Positions 42,220 to 59,338 of a stretch of DNA of 64,000 bases are shown in pieces. The stretch spans positions 1-64,000 of the forward strand of contig NZ_AKJW01000007.1 in assembly GCF_000282135.1 (NCBI RefSeq), written 5' to 3'. The notes under the pieces are model-generated. The model was not told the origin of the DNA. It worked only from the letters and a program-made list of their open reading frames with translations, and made no database searches. The translations under genes were made by a program, and so were the position numbers. Positions within the stretch are counted from its first letter, which is position 1, and each line of letters opens with the position of its first letter. Origin of the DNA: Herbaspirillum sp. CF444. GTDB lineage: Bacteria > Pseudomonadota > Gammaproteobacteria > Burkholderiales > Burkholderiaceae_D.

Positions 42220-42258
42220 CGCTTGGTGATTATTCGAAAAATATTAAAAGGATAGGTG

Positions 42259-43134
42259 ATGGAGTTTTCGAGTCCAGTTCAGGTGGTGCAGCAAGTATTC
42301 AGTTTCTTCGGAATAACTCCAGCGGCGCTGTGGGTTATTGTCTATCCGACGGTATTGATCGGAGCCATAGTATTGTTTGGCTGCTTTCGTACGCAGTCTG
42401 ATCATTTGCTGATGGCCAGAATATGGAGGCTTTTGCAAGGTAAGCGCCCGATCACAGATCAAGCTGTGAATTCCTATTTTGCAGATAGGGATGCCTTGAT
42501 GAAATTCACATTTCATACAACGCTCCCTATGCCAACTCTAGCTAATGTGCATCGAATAATCCAATGGGCAGACAAAAGAGAGATACCCATGCGCGAGATC
42601 CGAAAATGCGGCCATTTTTTCGATTTAAGAAAATTGGAAATTAGAAAAGAGAAAATATGGCGCTCATACCAGCAAATAATAGCGTTGCTAATAGGGATTG
42701 TTCTTGGCTATGGCTGCATTGGACTTGGAATATTGGCTCTTGCCCCGAACGTGCTTGTTCAGCTCAAAACAGGCGAACAGCGTTGGTTTTTTATAAGCGA
42801 AAAAGGGGCGGTAAAGACCCTTACTAAGGATAGTCGCTTTACGATCTCCGATTGCGCAAAAAATCAGAACGATATTTCAGTCAAATCGGGGTGGAACAGT
42901 GAAGATATAAAAACCATGTGCGAGATTCTCAAAGATCCTAGTTTGGATAAAGATGTGGCTGATATGTTGATTGGGCAGCGAGCGGCATCCTCTGTTTTTG
43001 CGGTGCTTTTTCTAGTCTTAACCTATATCTCCATCACATTATTCACTAGAAGTATTGCCGCGCGCGATATGTTGAAACTACTAGCTCAACTGGATGCAGA
43101 AGGAGCATTCATGCAACTAGAGCTTGATCTTTGA
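42259..43134 (+). CDS. membrane protein of unknown function, low G+C
   Basis: A 291-residue protein with predicted helices near residues 10-50 (FGITPAALWVIVYPTVLIGAIVLF), 138-160 (IIALLIGIVLGYGCIGLGILAL) and 244-265 (SSVFAVLFLVLTYISITLF). Between the last two lies a roughly 80-residue extracytoplasmic-type region with two cysteines (SDCAKNQNDI, TMCEILKDP). No family recognised. Base composition and codon use are markedly A+T-richer than the LysR and symporter genes on either side, suggesting acquisition. The ATG at 42259 follows AAAAGGA. Confidence 0.75.
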   Translation: MEFSSPVQVVQQVFSFFGITPAALWVIVYPTVLIGAIVLFGCFRTQSDHLLMARIWRLLQGKRPITDQAVNSYFADRDALMKFTFHTTLPMPTLANVHRIIQWADKREIPMREIRKCGHFFDLRKLEIRKEKIWRSYQQIIALLIGIVLGYGCIGLGILALAPNVLVQLKTGEQRWFFISEKGAVKTLTKDSRFTISDCAKNQNDISVKSGWNSEDIKTMCEILKDPSLDKDVADMLIGQRAASSVFAVLFLVLTYISITLFTRSIAARDMLKLLAQLDAEGAFMQLELDL

Positions 43135-53270: not shown

Positions 53271-53858
53271 TCAAGAATCAAACTCATCAAAATCTGCCCA
53301 GAGCCCACGGATGGCTGCCACTCCACATGCTCCGAAAGACTTTGCCAATGAAACATGCAAACGGGTCATCCCGCCAAGGGCGTATACAGGAAGACTGACT
53401 GAATTGGCCATCTCTGAAAATTTCCTCCAACCAATGGGCGTTGCGTCAGGATGGGACTTTGTCGCCAATACTGGGGAAAGCGTGACAAAATCTACGCCAA
53501 TATGCTTGGCATGCATAAGTTCTTCTAAAGAATGACACGATGCGGAGATCAACTTGTTGTATCCAGGCGGATGTGTCTGAGTACCGAGCAGGCGGCAGCT
53601 GTCGAGATGTATTCCGTCGGCATCTACGCATTCCAAGTCATGCAACGGGCCATTTAAAATCAACCGGGCTCCATACTCGCGACAGACTTTGAGAGCGCTT
53701 TGCGCCAGTTCTGAATAGACTTCTTTATCCAATTTCTTGGATCGCAGTTGAACCATTTTCACGCCGCTAGATAATGACCTTCCCAGTACTTCCAAAAAGA
53801 ACGGAAGGGCTTCTGGTTCTGGAGTGATCAGGTAGAGTTCCGGTTCTTCAAATGTCAT
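53271..53858 (-). CDS. stand-alone thiamine-phosphate-synthase-like (ThiE/TenI) protein
   Basis: A 195-residue TIM-barrel protein. It opens with LYLITPEPEALPFFL, then GVKMVQLRSKKLD, LILNGPLHDLECVDADGIHLD, ISASCHSLEELMHAKHIGVDF, LSPVLATKSHPDATPIGW and YALGGM...GACGVAAIRGLW. These segments match best the C-terminal domain fused to the Nudix hydrolase in proteobacterial MutT/thiamine-phosphate-synthase fusions, here without the Nudix half. It starts 15 nt after the LuxR-type gene. Role in the peptide cluster unclear: cofactor-like ligand binding or a passenger gene. Confidence 0.82.
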   Translation of the reverse strand: MTFEEPELYLITPEPEALPFFLEVLGRSLSSGVKMVQLRSKKLDKEVYSELAQSALKVCREYGARLILNGPLHDLECVDADGIHLDSCRLLGTQTHPPGYNKLISASCHSLEELMHAKHIGVDFVTLSPVLATKSHPDATPIGWRKFSEMANSVSLPVYALGGMTRLHVSLAKSFGACGVAAIRGLWADFDEFDS

Positions 53859-53873
53859 TTTGGCCGCACATGT

Positions 53874-54707
53874 TTAGAGGTTATCGAGAGTTTTCGCTTG
53901 CGTCGTACGGGGTCTGTCACAGTCAGATCGTTTGTGGGTATTCGATAGTCTGAGGATCAGCTCTGTTTTGTTCATGCAGCCTAGTCGCGACTTCATATTA
54001 TCAATATGAGTCTCAATGGTACGAGGCGAGACAATCAGTAATGTCGCAATTTCACGCGCGGTCTTCCCTGCAATGACATATTGGGCGATCTGGGTTTGTC
54101 GTGGAGTGAGTTCACATTCGTTTGTTAACGATCCAAGGTGGACATTTTTAGTTGAAACAGGCGTTCCTGGCATGCCGGAATGAGGCCTTGTCCCAGATAT
54201 CAAACGTTCTTTATCTGCTTGGGCAATTAGTTTGGAAGCAGCGACCTTGAAGAAGGCGACGAAACTCTCCAACATGTCCAGATTGTTCAAATAAAAGCCA
54301 ACGGCATTTACATTCGATACTGACGAATAGAAAAGAAAATACTCACAATATTCATCGGTAAAATTAATTATCTTGAATGGGAATGCGTGATCAAAGAGAT
54401 TTCGCTGATCATTAATTTGCGCAATATATCTATTTCGCGTTTCGGTGGTAAATGAGCAGACCTTGTGTTCAAGAATTGCATAGCGCTCTTTATGGCCGTA
54501 ATAATCAGGAGTATACGAACCGACAATGTATTTTTTTTCGAAGAAGGTATGATTTAGCGCACGTGCATCCGACCACAATTCAGATCGTGATCCATCTTTA
54601 TATACGCGCGAGTAAGAAAAACAATTGATTCCAGATCTCCTGAAAAAATCCTGGCAAATTGAAGTAACGTCGTTTGCTGCAATGAATGAGATATTCAGGC
54701 AAGACAT
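53874..54707 (-). CDS. LuxR family transcriptional regulator
   Basis: A 277-residue regulator. The C-terminal HTH reads LTPRQTQIAQYVIAGKTAREIATLLIVSPRTIETHIDNMKSRLG (residues ~208-252). The N-terminal ~190 residues are a PAS-like sensor domain with no acyl-homoserine-lactone signature that I can see. The start at 54707 (MSCLNISF) is preferred over an upstream ATG. It is likely the pathway-specific regulator of the adjacent peptide cluster; its ligand is unknown. Confidence 0.85.
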   Translation of the reverse strand: MSCLNISFIAANDVTSICQDFFRRSGINCFSYSRVYKDGSRSELWSDARALNHTFFEKKYIVGSYTPDYYGHKERYAILEHKVCSFTTETRNRYIAQINDQRNLFDHAFPFKIINFTDEYCEYFLFYSSVSNVNAVGFYLNNLDMLESFVAFFKVAASKLIAQADKERLISGTRPHSGMPGTPVSTKNVHLGSLTNECELTPRQTQIAQYVIAGKTAREIATLLIVSPRTIETHIDNMKSRLGCMNKTELILRLSNTHKRSDCDRPRTTQAKTLDNL

Positions 54708-54866
54708 AATTTCCGCTTCCTTTTCTCTATGGGGGCGCTGGTAACGGAAACGCCTCTCGATCGCCATGGTTATGGCGACATCACTAGATTAGTTTGCAGA
54801 CTGAATGAATTTGATGTTTTTCTTCCTTTCTGATTACGGAAAAACTAAAAGAAGCAATTTCTCGGA

Positions 54867-54895
54867 ATACTTTTATTTCTATTGAATAAAAGTAT
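54867..54895. terminator. 11-bp A+T-rich stem-loop between cupin and LuxR genes
   Basis: ATACTTTTATT and its perfect complement AATAAAAGTAT are separated by 7 nt. It lies downstream of the JmjC-type gene (stop at 54941) and upstream of the regulator. It could end the biosynthetic transcript or serve as an operator for the regulator. Confidence 0.5.
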
Positions 54896-54940
54896 CGATG
54901 ATTGTCTGTTGTGCTACACAAACGGAATAGCTACCTGGTC

Positions 54941-56116
54941 TCAGACGAACGCCTGTTTACCGACAAGGCCTTTATCCATCAAACTTGTTAAAGCTCTTGA
55001 AATATCTGCCCACAGATTTTCGCTTGTTATCAGTTGTGCGCCGCGTGTCATTGTTTGAGAAGAGAGCTGAGAGAGAATCTTGTATTCGACTGCAGTCAAT
55101 CTGTGGATCTGTCCCAACGCATAGACGTCAATTTCGTTTGTATTTGTTGTTGTATCCAGTGATGCTATATCGAACGATATCCGACGAAAGCTATCCTCCT
55201 CGCCAGCCAAATTCAGAGAAGGAAAGTTTGCTCTGATGCGAGAGCTTGCGTGGCCCGCATAGAATGTTTTGGAAAATTTTTCTAGATTTTCGGAAGTGAT
55301 TAATCTCTGAAAATGATTTTCACAAACCTTTAGTAGTTCTTCTCGATTCGTGCAGGACTGGCGAATATCGTGATACGAGAGCCCATATTTCTCTCTCGCT
55401 AGTCCCCATTGAACAAAATCCATCATCGTGGGATAGACCAGACTAATCGTCAGGTGAAGACTCTTTTCATTTAATGCAATTACATCGTGCCATGTTCCTT
55501 TCGGGACAAACATCACATCTCCGGACGAAATTACCAGTTCAACACCTCGATCTGAGGCTGACGGCGCTTGGATGTCTTTCACAGTCGCCTTTCTTTTTGC
55601 GTCGACAGACGAAGCAAAGAACTGCCATCTCTTTCGTCCCTCAAGCTGAATGACGATTACGTCATGATCATCATTGTGGATACCGAAGCCGGAGATGCTG
55701 CCAAAAGAGACGTAGGCATTCGCGGTTGACTGAGCGCCAAGCGTTCCACCCAGCGTTTCAGTTAGATTTCCTACGCTGGGAACTAATTCGTTCACAGCCT
55801 CAAGAACTCCTGTAACACCCTCCCTCATCAAGACATGGAGTTCGTTAATTAGAAGATGATCCGTCGTACGGCCAAATCGGTCCCGGGCATGTCGAAATGC
55901 TCTTCTGTTAACTTCTTCGTGCTCACTTGCGGTAGACATTCGAAATCTGTCATTCGTAATTCGATTGCACGACAAGCATGAGTTTAATTCTCTCCACGAA
56001 AATACTTGCTCCAATTCCTCTTTTTCAAAACGCCCACTCCAGAATGTTTTTTGAGCATGGCTATCTCGAAAATCACTACGTCGCAACAAGAGCTGTGCAA
56101 AATTACTTCCATTCAT
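54941..56116 (-). CDS. JmjC/Cupin_4-type 2-oxoglutarate oxygenase
   Basis: A 391-residue protein of the ribosomal-oxygenase-like (YcfD/RoxA) fold. The iron facial triad is visible: His and Asp in FGIHNDDHDVIVIQLEGRKRWQFF (about His147/Asp149) and the distal His in PKGTWHDVIALNEKSLHLTIS (about His210). The C-terminal ~150 residues form a winged-helix-like dimer region, as in ROX proteins. Likely reaction is hydroxylation of a residue in a peptide or protein. The start at 56116 follows GGAGG at 6-nt spacing, 12 nt inside the stop of the ABC gene. Candidate tailoring enzyme for the small peptide. Confidence 0.85.
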   Translation of the reverse strand: MNGSNFAQLLLRRSDFRDSHAQKTFWSGRFEKEELEQVFSWRELNSCLSCNRITNDRFRMSTASEHEEVNRRAFRHARDRFGRTTDHLLINELHVLMREGVTGVLEAVNELVPSVGNLTETLGGTLGAQSTANAYVSFGSISGFGIHNDDHDVIVIQLEGRKRWQFFASSVDAKRKATVKDIQAPSASDRGVELVISSGDVMFVPKGTWHDVIALNEKSLHLTISLVYPTMMDFVQWGLAREKYGLSYHDIRQSCTNREELLKVCENHFQRLITSENLEKFSKTFYAGHASSRIRANFPSLNLAGEEDSFRRISFDIASLDTTTNTNEIDVYALGQIHRLTAVEYKILSQLSSQTMTRGAQLITSENLWADISRALTSLMDKGLVGKQAFV

Positions 56117-56127
56117 CGCTACCTCCA

Positions 56128-57486
56128 TTAATGACGTATTTCAACCACCACTTTTGTCTTGCTGACTTCATCCAATATCAGATCGATGCACTGAGTATTT
56201 TTGGCATCTATGTTGGCGTCCCACTCATCTAGCAGTAAGTATTTGATATCGTCAATTTGCAGTATCTCTGCAATTAACGAGGCCGTTTTCTGACCAGTAG
56301 ACATACTCTCGTCATTTGTCTTCCAAGTGAGATCGGCGTGATTCGCGGGCAAGAGAAAGCTGTCGTCTTTGTATCGGTTTTTCAATGCCAATAGGACGGT
56401 AGATTTTCCACTACCATTCGCACCACTAATCTTGAATCGCCCGTTTTTTGCGAGAGAAACCATCTCCACTGCGACCGTGGCGTCATTCACGGACTCTCCG
56501 TTCATGATTATTGTTTTAATCTCTCCGCGACGGATGGTGTTTTCGTCCGACATCATCATCTCGGCTTCAAACAAAACAGCCAGCCTTGCTTGCATGGAGA
56601 AAAAATCAAGCGCCTTATACACCAGTGCGCTGAGTGAATTCAGGATGAGAAATACACGAGTCAAGCTAACAATGACGGCGGCAAGAATCGCAGGCGCTGA
56701 ATGACCGTCTCTGACGATCGATACGATAAGGAATATGGTTGGACCCAATGACGCCGTTGCCAGAAGAATATTCCCGGCCTGCTTCAGCAATTGCAATCGA
56801 CTCGATGAGGAATAGAAATCTCTGCTTGCGTTGGCAGTTTTTTCTTGCCATAGAAGCTGGCTATGTTTATTGCCTAGAGCGAGATTTTCCCAGCATTTAT
56901 CCAACACTCCGGAGAAGCTGACATAGTTGTTTTCATATATTGAGGATGCGGTCGATACAAGGTGCCGCAATCCTAAAACGATCAAAAAGCAAAGTACTAA
57001 ACTTAGACCGTAACCGAATAGTAGTTGAGGCGGGAGAAGGAGGCCGATGACGATCATGCTCAATGCACTATTTAGCGAAAAACTCGCGAGGTCATGTACC
57101 GCAGAGACATAATCTCTGATCATTAAATATGAACTGCGAGCAAGAACAGACTTTGTTCGCTCGCGTAATTCTGGATTGCGATACCGCTCAACATTTCCCG
57201 ACACTGAAAAAATCAATTTCCGAGCAAAACTTGCATGCGCGCTATTGATCCATTTTTGGAGAAAGACGAACGACATGGTCCCGGGAATATAAGGAACGGT
57301 CATTGAAAGAAGATACAAATAGAGATAAGCAGAAAATGCTTCATGTGCCTGGAATCTCTCGATGATTTTGGTCAAAAAAACCGTTGATCCGGCAACAATT
57401 GATTGATGGACAAGGACGAGTGCCAAGGCAACCCAGGCGCTGGGATGGACATATAAAATTTGCCATTTCCATTTTCTCAAGCTCAC
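56128..57486 (-). CDS. ABC transporter, fused membrane and compact ATPase domains
   Basis: A 452-residue half-transporter with about six transmembrane helices (residues 12-310), then a short nucleotide-binding domain of about 130 residues. Walker A is ISGANGSGKSTVLLAL (near 350), the signature is degenerate (MSTGQKTAS, near 394), Walker B is KYLLLDEWDAN (near 420) and the H-loop His is in EIRH at the very end. The compact domain lacks most of the usual helical subdomain. It is likely an inner-membrane peptide exporter of the cluster. No C39 leader peptidase. GTG start after GGAGATC. Confidence 0.85.
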   Translation of the reverse strand: MSLRKWKWQILYVHPSAWVALALVLVHQSIVAGSTVFLTKIIERFQAHEAFSAYLYLYLLSMTVPYIPGTMSFVFLQKWINSAHASFARKLIFSVSGNVERYRNPELRERTKSVLARSSYLMIRDYVSAVHDLASFSLNSALSMIVIGLLLPPQLLFGYGLSLVLCFLIVLGLRHLVSTASSIYENNYVSFSGVLDKCWENLALGNKHSQLLWQEKTANASRDFYSSSSRLQLLKQAGNILLATASLGPTIFLIVSIVRDGHSAPAILAAVIVSLTRVFLILNSLSALVYKALDFFSMQARLAVLFEAEMMMSDENTIRRGEIKTIIMNGESVNDATVAVEMVSLAKNGRFKISGANGSGKSTVLLALKNRYKDDSFLLPANHADLTWKTNDESMSTGQKTASLIAEILQIDDIKYLLLDEWDANIDAKNTQCIDLILDEVSKTKVVVEIRH

Positions 57487-57536
57487 AAGATCTCCGTTGT
57501 TGTCTACGTGGCGCGTCTCTTTGCCGAGAGGCTATT

Positions 57537-58439
57537 TCAGCTAACACGTTTGAAGTTGCGAGTTAGATTCCTGTGCAAGGGAAGAAACTCGTTTTCGAGT
57601 ATTTGGCGAGCATTCCTCAACAAATCTGCAGCTCGTTCATGAAAGATAAAATCATTGGATGAGATGGCGCTTTCCGTTGATAGTATCGATTCATCTAATT
57701 GTTCAATCATCAGATCAGTTGGTGGATGAACACGAGGATTCGTCGGATGGCCGAGATGGTACTTGCGGAACAAGAGTACTTCCGTTGCGACGACAATACT
57801 GTGCAAAACCTTGTCCAAGGGGCGGGATGCATTGAGGATCGCTGATCGCGCCCATGTTGAACGATCCATCACCATTTCGTATGAATAGTGTTTGTATCGA
57901 AGTTCATCTAAGAACATCGCATGGTGGGTAAATTCATGTATCAGCATTTCCACGATATCCGCTGTTGTATAGGCGGTTTTTGGGTTTGCCCAGATCAGGC
58001 CGATGGCTTGGGATGTTGATCCTCCTTTGGCAACGCGCGAAGGCAAAATGAATATATCGGTAACCACGGTTCTGACGATGGCCGCATAGTCCGGGGAATA
58101 CAAAGATAATTCCTGGAGTGCTTGTTTGATGCGGCTCTTTTTTTCGTTGACTTCTCCGTCCTGAGATATCTCGATGACGGCAGCTTGTTGTTTGTCGTCC
58201 AGCAATGAATCATTGGAGAAGTATTGACGCAACTTGGCAGCGTCATCTTCGTGTGTAATGAAAGAGACTTCACAAGAAGTCGTCTCTATTTCTCGCTGTC
58301 CCAAAGAGGCCAGAAATTTTCTATACCCGCCACGGGCTTGATTAAGTGAGTTGCAATTCTGACTGCCTTCGGAATCGACCGTCCCGATTAACGTTAGCAC
58401 TGTCTGTATTTGATCGGAATAGCTGGTTTGCAGGATCAT
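57537..58439 (-). CDS. HExxH protein, putative peptide beta-hydroxylase of a RiPP pathway
   Basis: A 300-residue protein with HEFTHH (His168, Glu169, His172) in VEMLIHEFTHHAMFLDELRYKHYS and a downstream helix SIVVATEVLLFRKYH. The topology matches the HExxH domain found in peptide-modifying proteins, some of which are 2-oxoglutarate-dependent peptide beta-hydroxylases rather than proteases; family placement is by eye. It lies directly downstream of the small peptide gene, separated by a 53-bp gap with a stem-loop. AGGAGAGAAAC precedes the ATG. It may be a zinc protease for leader removal or an iron hydroxylase. Confidence 0.75.
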   Translation of the reverse strand: MILQTSYSDQIQTVLTLIGTVDSEGSQNCNSLNQARGGYRKFLASLGQREIETTSCEVSFITHEDDAAKLRQYFSNDSLLDDKQQAAVIEISQDGEVNEKKSRIKQALQELSLYSPDYAAIVRTVVTDIFILPSRVAKGGSTSQAIGLIWANPKTAYTTADIVEMLIHEFTHHAMFLDELRYKHYSYEMVMDRSTWARSAILNASRPLDKVLHSIVVATEVLLFRKYHLGHPTNPRVHPPTDLMIEQLDESILSTESAISSNDFIFHERAADLLRNARQILENEFLPLHRNLTRNFKRVS

Positions 58440-58462
58440 GTTTCTCTCCTATCGAAGAAATA

Positions 58463-58484
58463 GGGACGCAAAAAATTGCGTCCC
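58463..58484 (-). terminator. stem-loop between precursor peptide and enzyme genes
   Basis: An 8-bp stem (GGGACGCA/TGCGTCCC) with a 6-nt loop lies in the 53-bp gap after the peptide stop. No long T-run follows, so it may be a partial terminator or mRNA-stabilising structure that keeps precursor mRNA in excess. Confidence 0.65.
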
Positions 58485-58492
58485 CCGAATGC

Positions 58493-58654
58493 TTACTTTT
58501 GATCTTCGTAAGCAATCATATTGAGAGGCTGATTCATATTCCATGCACGCCCATCGATTTGAGTTTCGACTTCTTTCTTGGTCGCATCAATGTCTTCTCG
58601 AGTGATTTTTTCGGCGGTGGATTTGACGATGGAATCGAGATTGATCTTCGACAT
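58493..58654 (-). CDS. putative RiPP precursor peptide, 53 residues
   Basis: A short gene with AAGGAG 7 nt before the ATG. The peptide starts MSKINLDSIVKSTAEKIT, continues with a Lys/Glu-rich helical stretch (REDIDATKKEVETQID) and ends GRAWNMNQPLNMIAYEDQK. The charged N-terminal part looks like a leader; the C-terminal 19 residues, richer in Asn, Met and aromatics, look like a core. No Cys, no Gly-Gly leader motif. First gene of a run with HExxH, ABC exporter and JmjC genes, which makes a precursor role the best explanation. No homologue recognised. Confidence 0.7.
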   Translation of the reverse strand: MSKINLDSIVKSTAEKITREDIDATKKEVETQIDGRAWNMNQPLNMIAYEDQK

Positions 58655-59019
58655 GTTTGGCTCCTTTAGTTAGTGCCACCGAATTGGTGGTGCCGTCACT
58701 ATCTCTCGTATTGCAATGACATTCAGTCGTAGAAATACGGATATGCAAACTGCGAGGAGCATTTCTTTCCCTGTTTTTCAGTGTTATTTGATGTGAATAT
58801 AGAAAAGCATCTATGTGATGACTCGAATGGCATGGTGCCGGGCGAATTTCATCCATTTCGATACAGCAAAGGATTGGATCTGCCTTTGTTTCAGGTCGAG
58901 AACATTGCCGCTAATGCAGAACATCGACTTTTCGGGTTGGCTCATGATGGCGGTCCAAAATGCAATGTTCTCCCAACGGGCGTGCCCGGATAATTCGACG
59001 CCGACTTCCAGTCTGATAT
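58655..59019. other. upstream region of the putative RiPP operon
   Basis: No gene supported. The first 150 bp are A+T-rich and must hold the peptide promoter; a dyad CCACC-GAATT-GGTGG at 58676-58690, 21 bp upstream of the peptide start codon, is a candidate operator. From about 58810 to 59010 open frames exist on both strands without start sites or recognisable similarity, probably decayed sequence at the island border. Confidence 0.5.
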
Positions 59020-59338
59020 TTCTTTGGTCTGGTCGGCGTGACCCAGGCGGTGCTGTCGCACATGCGCACCCGTCGCGTCGATGACGCATGTGCAGAACCA
59101 CATCGCCGACGATGAAGTCAGCACCGAGGGGCTGGCGCAACGCAACGGTCGTCAGATCGGCGACCCGCGCAAGACGGCGCAGGCCATTTTCATGGTGCTG
59201 GAGTCAGACCAGCCGCCGCTGCATCTGCTGCCCGGCGTCGGCGCGCTCTTGCAGGTCGGCAAGAAACTGAGCGCCTTGCAGGAAGAACTGGGCAAGTGGG
59301 GCGGGCTGTCGGTCAACACCAGTTTTGCCGAGGCGTAA
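59020..59338 (+). pseudogene. remnant of an SDR family oxidoreductase
   Basis: Two collapsed pieces of one short-chain dehydrogenase. The stretch 59020-59113 encodes FGLVGVTQAVLSHMRTRR, the helix before the catalytic serine. In another frame, 59081-59338 encodes the C-terminal part (IGDPRKTAQAIFMVLESDQPPLHLLPG ... FAEA). The nucleotide-binding N-terminus and the Ser-Tyr-Lys core are missing. G+C is like the native chromosome. The gene was apparently truncated when the neighbouring island arrived. Confidence 0.8.

What the first reader, a model, noticed from the sequence alone, without database searches (positions are those of the whole stretch)
53271..58690. Putative undescribed RiPP cluster on a low-G+C island
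Seen: seven same-strand genes of low G+C, starting with a 53-residue peptide, then a HExxH protein, an ABC exporter, a JmjC/Cupin_4 oxygenase, a LuxR-type regulator and a ThiE-like protein. Known: HExxH-domain and JmjC/cupin proteins are separately linked to peptide modification, and precursor-enzyme-exporter order is the RiPP norm. Inferred: together they make, modify and export a peptide. None of the usual class-defining enzymes (LanM/LanB, YcaO, radical SAM, ATP-grasp, MNIO) is present, so this would not fall into a class I know.
Basis: partly seen in the sequence, partly recalled or inferred. Interest (0 to 1): 0.92.

Follow-up and report, generated by a model that had tools for sequence, protein, structure and literature searches.

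The report
Undescribed HExxH-modified peptide (RiPP) family
A short bacterial peptide gene sits beside two oxygen-using enzymes and an exporter, and relatives of this peptide recur next to the same kind of genes in about a dozen bacteria, so this is very probably a small undescribed family of chemically modified, exported peptides.

Summary
Six (not seven) minus-strand genes lie on a 6.0-kb low-G+C island that is absent, but for 24 and about 50 bases, from two same-genus genomes. The RiPP reading holds. A short peptide gene recurs directly upstream of the HExxH and ABC genes in 12 of 13 family loci; in the 13th the core is deleted. The C-terminal core is conserved, L-[N/R]-M-I-[A/S]-[Y/F]-[E/D/N]; in six precursors core codons 38-50 have pN 0.014 against pS 0.877, while the leader drifts (pN 0.34). 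The HExxH protein passes NCBIfam TIGR04267 (aKG-HExxH peptide beta-hydroxylase), an enzyme type already characterised in RiPPs, so "no class-defining enzyme" is wrong in part. The architecture (HExxH as the only shared enzyme, dedicated short ABC exporter) and the core motif appear in none of the paper listings seen. JmjC tracks the core: present in 6 of 6 WNMNQxLNMIAYE loci (one cut short), 0 of 6 LRMI[AS][YF] loci, but the tree allows a single transition. Proposed: HExxH hydroxylates the shared motif, JmjC the Asn-rich segment. LuxR and ThiE are island cargo. No structure was predicted (server busy).

The parts
58493..58654 (-). RiPP precursor gene, 53 aa: leader about 1-37, conserved core 38-50 (WNMNQPLNMIAYE), tail DQK; the leader/core border is inferred from conservation
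   Evidence: homologs at the same place in 12 of 13 family loci; core pS 0.877, pN 0.014
58661..58665 (-). Shine-Dalgarno AGGAG of the precursor gene
   Evidence: sequence
58440..58492 (-). intergenic stretch with a stem-loop (58485-58462), proposed attenuator or processing element between precursor and enzyme genes
   Evidence: (z -5.57); a stem-loop at this place in 10 of 10 loci folded, z of -3.3 or below in 8 of 10
57537..58439 (-). aKG-HExxH-type peptide hydroxylase, 300 aa, HEFTH at 168-172
   Evidence: TIGR04267.2, 3.5e-25, 89 bits, cut-off 40; 9 of 9 family members scanned match the model at E 0.001
56128..57486 (-). short ABC half-exporter, 452 aa, membrane part plus ATPase ending at the H-loop His; no peptidase domain seen
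   Evidence: G355..T363, S396-T397-G398-Q399, D420, E421 and H452 invariant in 6 of 6 aligned
54941..56128 (-). JmjC (PF08007) oxygenase, 395 aa; Fe ligands H151, D153, H214 inferred from the alignment to NO66
   Evidence: PF08007 1.4e-23; profile matches NO66, MINA and YcfD-type enzymes; 5 of 5 full-length members match PF08007
53874..54767 (-). LuxR-type regulator (GerE domain); island cargo, not conserved in the family
   Evidence: no tblastn match in the family loci as fetched
53271..53858 (-). ThiE/TenI-like protein; island cargo, not conserved in the family
   Evidence: PF02581 4.6e-39; no match in the family loci as fetched; a second copy elsewhere in the genome
53253..59270 (.). inserted island that carries all six genes (right edge 59270 by G023; 59381 by G005)
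   Evidence: empty site in G023 (24 bases between the flanking matches) and G005 (50 bases)

Best explanation
A RiPP cassette, acquired by insertion in this genome. The 53-mer is translated as leader plus core; a stem-loop after it probably lets more precursor than enzyme be made (inferred). The cytoplasmic aKG-HExxH enzyme, guided by the leader, beta-hydroxylates residues in the motif shared by the 12 precursors, L-x-M-I-[A/S]-[Y/F]-[E/D/N], most likely at positions 49-51 (inferred). In the Asn-type clade, which includes the window, the JmjC oxygenase adds a second hydroxylation in the segment W-N-M-N-Q-x-L-N (inferred from co-occurrence). The dedicated ABC half-exporter, fused to the HExxH enzyme in one relative, exports the product; a protease from elsewhere in the genome removes the leader (none in the cluster). 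LuxR and ThiE are local cargo, LuxR perhaps a regulator. Shown: gene order, conservation, selection on the core, family membership of the enzymes, the insertion. Inferred: chemistry, order of steps, activity of the product.
For: Core codons 38-50 of six Asn-type precursors, window included: pS 0.877, pN 0.014; leader pN 0.340. HExxH above the TIGR04267 cut-off; 9 of 9 members scanned match the model. JmjC present in 6 of 6 Asn-type loci (L005 cut short) and 0 of 6 Arg-type. The rule was noted; G1072 and G1551 were read afterwards and fit, both on the Arg side. HExxH-ABC fusion in G1072. Precedents: in nitrilobacillins a core Pro that co-occurs with the HExxH gene is its target (PMC13060819, passages); biphenomycin uses JmjC BipG and HExxH BipH on one peptide (PMC12707348, passages).
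Against: No chemistry, transcript or product was observed. The Asn-type loci form one group in the HExxH tree (89/88, 11 rows), so the JmjC/core link may be a single historical event, and no new Asn-type locus turned up after the rule was framed. No protease and no recognised RRE domain in the cassette; Pfam shows only weak winged-helix (Penicillinase_R) matches in 2 of 5 JmjC proteins. Some loci are damaged: HExxH split in G165, first motif His replaced and JmjC cut in L005, precursor core and HExxH front missing in Ralstonia. The stem-loop is not significant in L004 (z -0.53) and weak in L026 (z -2.02). In Herbaspirillum YR522 the cassette has the G+C of its surroundings, so recent transfer is not evident there.
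Confidence: 0.65

Rival explanations
1. The HExxH enzyme cleaves the backbone oxidatively at the conserved [A/S]48, as PflC/PosC do at the Ala of ARMD, giving a C-terminal amide and releasing the [Y/F][E/D/N].. tail as a follower.
For: Same enzyme family; PflC/PosC cleave at the Ala of a conserved C-terminal tetrapeptide and hydroxylate neighbouring Gln (PMC12636437). Position 48 is Ala or Ser in all 12 precursors.
Against: No ARMD motif, no MNIO-nitroreductase among the six genes, and no NCBIfam precursor family matches the peptides. A discarded tail would not be expected to be this conserved unless it is a recognition element.
Confidence: 0.2
2. The product is a peptide signal read by the LuxR-type protein rather than an antibacterial.
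For: LuxR gene next to the cassette on the same island; the near-invariant core of the Asn-type clade fits a shared signal.
Against: LuxR has no match in the other family loci as fetched. The ABC ORF is intact in 3 of 3 loci with damaged HExxH genes, which fits self-protection better; three cases are few.
Confidence: 0.15
3. The HExxH protein is a zinc protease that removes the leader, and the JmjC protein is the only modifying enzyme.
For: Zincin-type motif; PflC hydrolyses substrate that lacks the leader (PMC12636437, passages). No other protease in the cassette.
Against: Matches the peptide hydroxylase family above cut-off; six loci have HExxH with no JmjC match in the fetched DNA, which would leave no modification.
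Confidence: 0.08
4. Not a RiPP: the short ORF is a small partner protein of the exporter or enzyme.
For: No product known.
Against: A variable N-terminal half with a near-frozen short C-terminal motif, next to a peptide-modification enzyme family, is the RiPP pattern.
Confidence: 0.05

Closest known systems
pfl/pos RiPPs of Pseudomonas (PflC/PosC aKG-HExxH)
   Same: aKG-HExxH enzyme beside a precursor with a conserved C-terminal motif; transporters; no protease in the cluster (PMC12636437: abstract, sections 4, 6, 13 and passages)
   Different: Those have an MNIO-nitroreductase fusion, a GNAT, an NHLP leader, consecutive Gln and ARMD; none of these was found among the six genes or in the core here
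Biphenomycins (bip/bpm)
   Same: A JmjC hydroxylase (BipG) and an aKG-HExxH hydroxylase (BipH) act on one precursor (PMC12707348, passages; gene content also in PMC12257519, passages)
   Different: Built on an MNIO, a B12-radical SAM enzyme and an arginase acting on an FRF-type core; none here
Nitrilobacillins (pes)
   Same: aKG-HExxH PesO hydroxylates a core Pro that co-occurs with the enzyme gene (PMC13060819, passages)
   Different: AS-like nitrile synthetase, MNIO and M16 peptidases; none here
PF08007 JmjC proteins with RRE-like folds
   Same: Same Pfam family; closest bacterial homologs of fish and algal examples were in RiPP-like contexts (PMC12710340, one passage)
   Different: The RRE fold of the window protein was not tested; that passage does not mention HExxH (0 occurrences in the paper's main text)

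Membership tests
RiPP (general) | gene-encoded precursor with leader and conserved core beside modifying enzyme and exporter | tested here: met
   12 of 13 loci; core against leader selection
RiPP (general) | post-translational modification of the core | not testable with these tools
   needs mass spectrometry
RiPP (general) | leader removal | tested here: inconclusive
   no protease gene or peptidase domain among the six genes in the rows shown; a genome-encoded protease was not sought
aKG-HExxH peptide hydroxylases (TIGR04267) | score above curated cut-off and HExxH motif | tested here: met
   89 bits against 40 for the window protein; HEFTH 168-172; 9 of 9 members match the model at E 0.001; motif broken in 1 of 9 aligned, L005
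aKG-HExxH peptide hydroxylases (TIGR04267) | Fe(II)/aKG-dependent hydroxylation of a peptide | not testable with these tools
   needs enzyme assay; fold not predicted (server busy)
JmjC_2 hydroxylases (PF08007) | domain match and HxD...H iron triad | tested here: met
   H151, D153, H214 invariant in 5 of 5 full-length members
RRE-containing RiPP enzymes | RRE domain | tested here: inconclusive
   no PqqD/RRE family in the Pfam rows; weak Penicillinase_R winged-helix match in 2 of 5 JmjC proteins; structure jobs not accepted
pfl/pos RiPPs | MNIO-nitroreductase fusion and ARMD motif | tested here: not met
   no such gene among the six; core sequences
Biphenomycins | MNIO, radical SAM, arginase, FRF-type core | tested here: not met
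Lanthipeptides, YcaO, radical SAM, ATP-grasp RiPPs | the named enzyme in the cluster | tested here: not met
   no such match for the six genes in the rows shown

The most novel reading that the evidence does not exclude
A separate RiPP class whose only universal enzyme is an aKG-HExxH hydroxylase: a three-gene system (precursor, HExxH, dedicated ABC exporter) working at the membrane as one modify-and-export unit, as the HExxH-ABC fusion hints, to which one clade has added a JmjC asparaginyl hydroxylase together with a new WNMNQ-LN substrate segment, so that enzyme and substrate were gained together.
Probability: 0.4. Interest if true: 0.8.

Novelty: new variant of a known kind. Interest (0 to 1): 0.6.

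Why it matters
It gives a minimal system in which an aKG-HExxH enzyme is the only shared modifying enzyme, so its target residue and its dependence on a leader can be tested without partner enzymes. It also offers a ready test of how a RiPP pathway gains a second oxygenase: the JmjC gene and the Asn-rich core segment occur together. From general knowledge (recalled), JmjC oxygenases of this Pfam family are best known for acting on ribosomal proteins, so a short secreted peptide as substrate would widen their range.

Tried and rejected
Seventh gene: none found; six minus-strand genes account for the span. LuxR and ThiE as conserved pathway parts: rejected, no match in the family loci as fetched (in L005 the contig ends inside the cassette, so nothing downstream can be seen there); they remain island cargo. 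ThiE as a unique function: a second ThiE lies on contig C89 of the same genome. Phage origin: no relative found with the HExxH alignment and no exact match of an Asn-type core pattern in viral contigs. Host-protein mimicry: phmmer of the 53-mer against PDB sequences gave only weak matches of its leader part, best E 0.026, troponin C. Promoter scan: 7 sigma-70-like sites against 8.8 expected, uninformative; terminator-like sites 7 against 6.0. Flanking direct repeats at the island ends: nothing convincing. The first genome-contig scan, with the single protein, found nothing; the alignment scan found eight loci. An ABC search over 369 genomes of the class at E 1e-40 found only the window, with at most four candidates scored per genome in the rows shown, so it is insensitive. 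Genus searches round G133 (1 of 4) and G165 (1 of 5) added no locus. Distant HExxH loci L017-L019 and L043 have no core motif. Literature: eight searches listed no paper on this family; some lists were shorter than the count of matches (for example 10 of 15), and the library lacks most subscription journals. PMC13252029 was seen as abstract and outline only.
Full report
What is there. The window carries six minus-strand genes between 53271 and 58654: a 53-residue peptide, a 300-aa HExxH protein, a 452-aa ABC protein, a 395-aa JmjC protein, a LuxR-type protein and a ThiE-like protein. G+C is 0.41-0.46 over 54-59 kb, against 0.62-0.69 in the neighbouring kilobases outside. The island is an insertion: in same-genus genome G023 the sequences matching window 53252 and 59271 have 24 bases between them, and in G005 those matching 53249 and 59382 have 50. 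The flanks match at 84-88% over the long pieces. One flanking gene is LysR-type; the other looks like a hybrid sensor kinase (by eye).

The enzymes. The HExxH protein matches NCBIfam TIGR04267.2, aKG-HExxH-type peptide beta-hydroxylase, at 89 bits against a cut-off of 40; 9 of 9 family members scanned match the model at E 0.001 (G165, Ralstonia, G1072 and G1551 not in that set). No PDB chain matches the profile at E 0.1. The JmjC protein matches PF08007 at 1.4e-23 and, as a profile, NO66, MINA and the YcfD-type arginine hydroxylase; H151, D153 and H214 are invariant in 5 of 5 full-length members. The ABC protein has hydrophobic stretches in its first 300 residues, Walker A, an STGQ signature, D420-E421 and a final H452, and no peptidase domain in the rows shown.

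The family. Close HExxH relatives were found in 3 of 34 genomes of the genus, in 5 of 392 of the family, with three more distant matches, in 2 of 399 of the order including the window, in 1 of 398 of the phylum, the window, with one distant match, and in 2 of 200 of a second family. Two Acinetobacter plasmids of almost equal length matched; one was read. This makes 13 distinct loci: the window, Herbaspirillum sp. YR522, Noviherbaspirillum soli, a Duganella-labelled MAG, Cupriavidus sp. IDO, C. alkaliphilus, Acinetobacter sp. SAAs474 (plasmid), A. genomosp. 15BJ, A. gerneri, Ralstonia sp. SET104, and unnamed G165, G1072 and G1551. The second plasmid is not counted.

The precursor. Directly upstream of the HExxH gene a short ORF recurs in 12 of 13 loci. 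In Ralstonia a leader-like start runs into the middle of the HExxH gene, so the core and the HExxH front are missing. In the alignment of 10 of the 12 (G1072 and G1551 were found later) L44, M46, I47 and Y49 are invariant; G1551 has Phe at 49, and YR522 has Arg for the Pro at 43. In six Asn-type precursors, window included, core codons 38-50 have pS 0.877 and pN 0.014 summed over 15 pairs, leader codons 2-37 pS 0.731 and pN 0.340. A six-frame scan of 24 sequences (411,103 bases) for L.MI[AS]Y[DEN] gave 11 hits, all in these precursors; it would miss G1551.

Two core types and the JmjC gene. Six loci have WNMNQ-x-LNMIAYE, and all six carry the JmjC gene after the ABC gene; in the MAG L005 its reading ends early, near the end of the contig. 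Six have LRMI[AS][YF], and none has a JmjC match in the DNA fetched (L016, L020, L028, L029, L042; L061). The rest of those genomes was not searched for JmjC. The rule was noted; G1072 and G1551 were read afterwards and fit, both on the Arg side. The Asn-type loci form one group in the HExxH tree (89/88, 11 rows, G165 and Ralstonia left out as damaged). In the ABC tree (12 rows, G1551 not yet found) the Arg-type is one side of a branch (81/85), and the Ralstonia remnant falls among the Asn-type. So the association may rest on one change and is a lead, not a proof. The published nitrilobacillin case used the same kind of co-occurrence (a core Pro present only with the HExxH gene) and found that residue to be the target (PMC13060819, passages).

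Expression and export. A stem-loop lies between precursor and HExxH genes in 10 of 10 loci folded, with different sequences; z is -3.3 or below in 8, -2.02 in L026 and -0.53 in L004 (G1072 and G1551 not folded). I read it as an attenuator or processing element that favours precursor synthesis (inference). In G1072 HExxH and ABC are one 754-aa ORF, which suggests that they work together. In the three loci with damaged HExxH genes (G165, L005, Ralstonia) the ABC ORF is intact; this fits a role in self-protection, but three cases are few and sequencing errors are not excluded. The cassette is G+C-poor against its surroundings in Noviherbaspirillum, both Cupriavidus and G1551, but not in Herbaspirillum YR522.

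LuxR and ThiE. Neither has a tblastn match in the 15 loci (11 of them family loci) or in L061. In L005 the contig ends inside the cassette, so its downstream side is unseen. They came in with this island as far as seen. The genome has another ThiE.

What is known. aKG-HExxH enzymes hydroxylate Asp, His, Gln, Phe and Pro in RiPPs (PMC13060819, passages) and can cleave the backbone (PMC12636437). Biphenomycin combines a JmjC and an HExxH hydroxylase with MNIO and radical SAM enzymes (PMC12707348, PMC12257519, passages). PF08007 JmjC proteins with RRE-like folds, and bacterial homologs in RiPP-like contexts, have been noted (PMC12710340, one passage). None of the listings of eight paper searches showed this family or its motif.

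Verdict. It is a new variant of a known kind: a known enzyme type in an undescribed, minimal architecture with its own core motif. The structure jobs that could have tested the RRE idea were never accepted (15 attempts).

Noticed in passing
L026 12359-15704 (Cupriavidus sp. IDO): Shortly after the cassette lie an asparagine-synthetase-like ORF and an ABC exporter ORF that look like part of a lasso-peptide cluster; read by eye, not searched.
   Followed up: no
L036 39-4847 (Moraxella catarrhalis pLQ510) and L037 5652-10457 (Acinetobacter baumannii pVB2486_1): Relatives of the window's JmjC protein sit near HlyD and peptidase-domain ABC exporter genes, in L037 after a 61-aa ORF: possible JmjC-only exported peptides.
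   Followed up: partly
L035 1055-1948 (E. coli pNMBU-W12E19_05): A JmjC/cupin relative on a 7.9-kb mobilizable plasmid; the search counted 25 Escherichia plasmid records with a match; no exporter is annotated on the one opened.
   Followed up: partly
L021 7839-10990 (Staphylococcus aureus plasmid pPH1-1): Two tandem HExxH peptide-modification genes followed by an MFS transporter, another possible HExxH-only peptide system.
   Followed up: no
L030 7934-10013 (Ralstonia sp. SET104): Decayed copy: leader-like start fused into the HExxH gene; a short ORF after the ABC gene seems to keep only the two ends of JmjC (by eye; tblastn found no JmjC match).
   Followed up: partly
L005 11062-13838 (Duganella-labelled MAG): The HExxH protein has Tyr in place of the first motif His and the JmjC gene is cut short near the contig end, while precursor and ABC are intact.
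   Followed up: partly
window 59081-59338: GC-rich partial reading frame, oxidoreductase-like by eye, at the upstream edge of the island; the match to empty-site genome G023 resumes at 59271.
   Followed up: no
window 42256-43134: Another stretch of lower G+C (0.47 and 0.52 per kilobase) with a 292-aa ORF that looks like a membrane protein of unknown kind.
   Followed up: no
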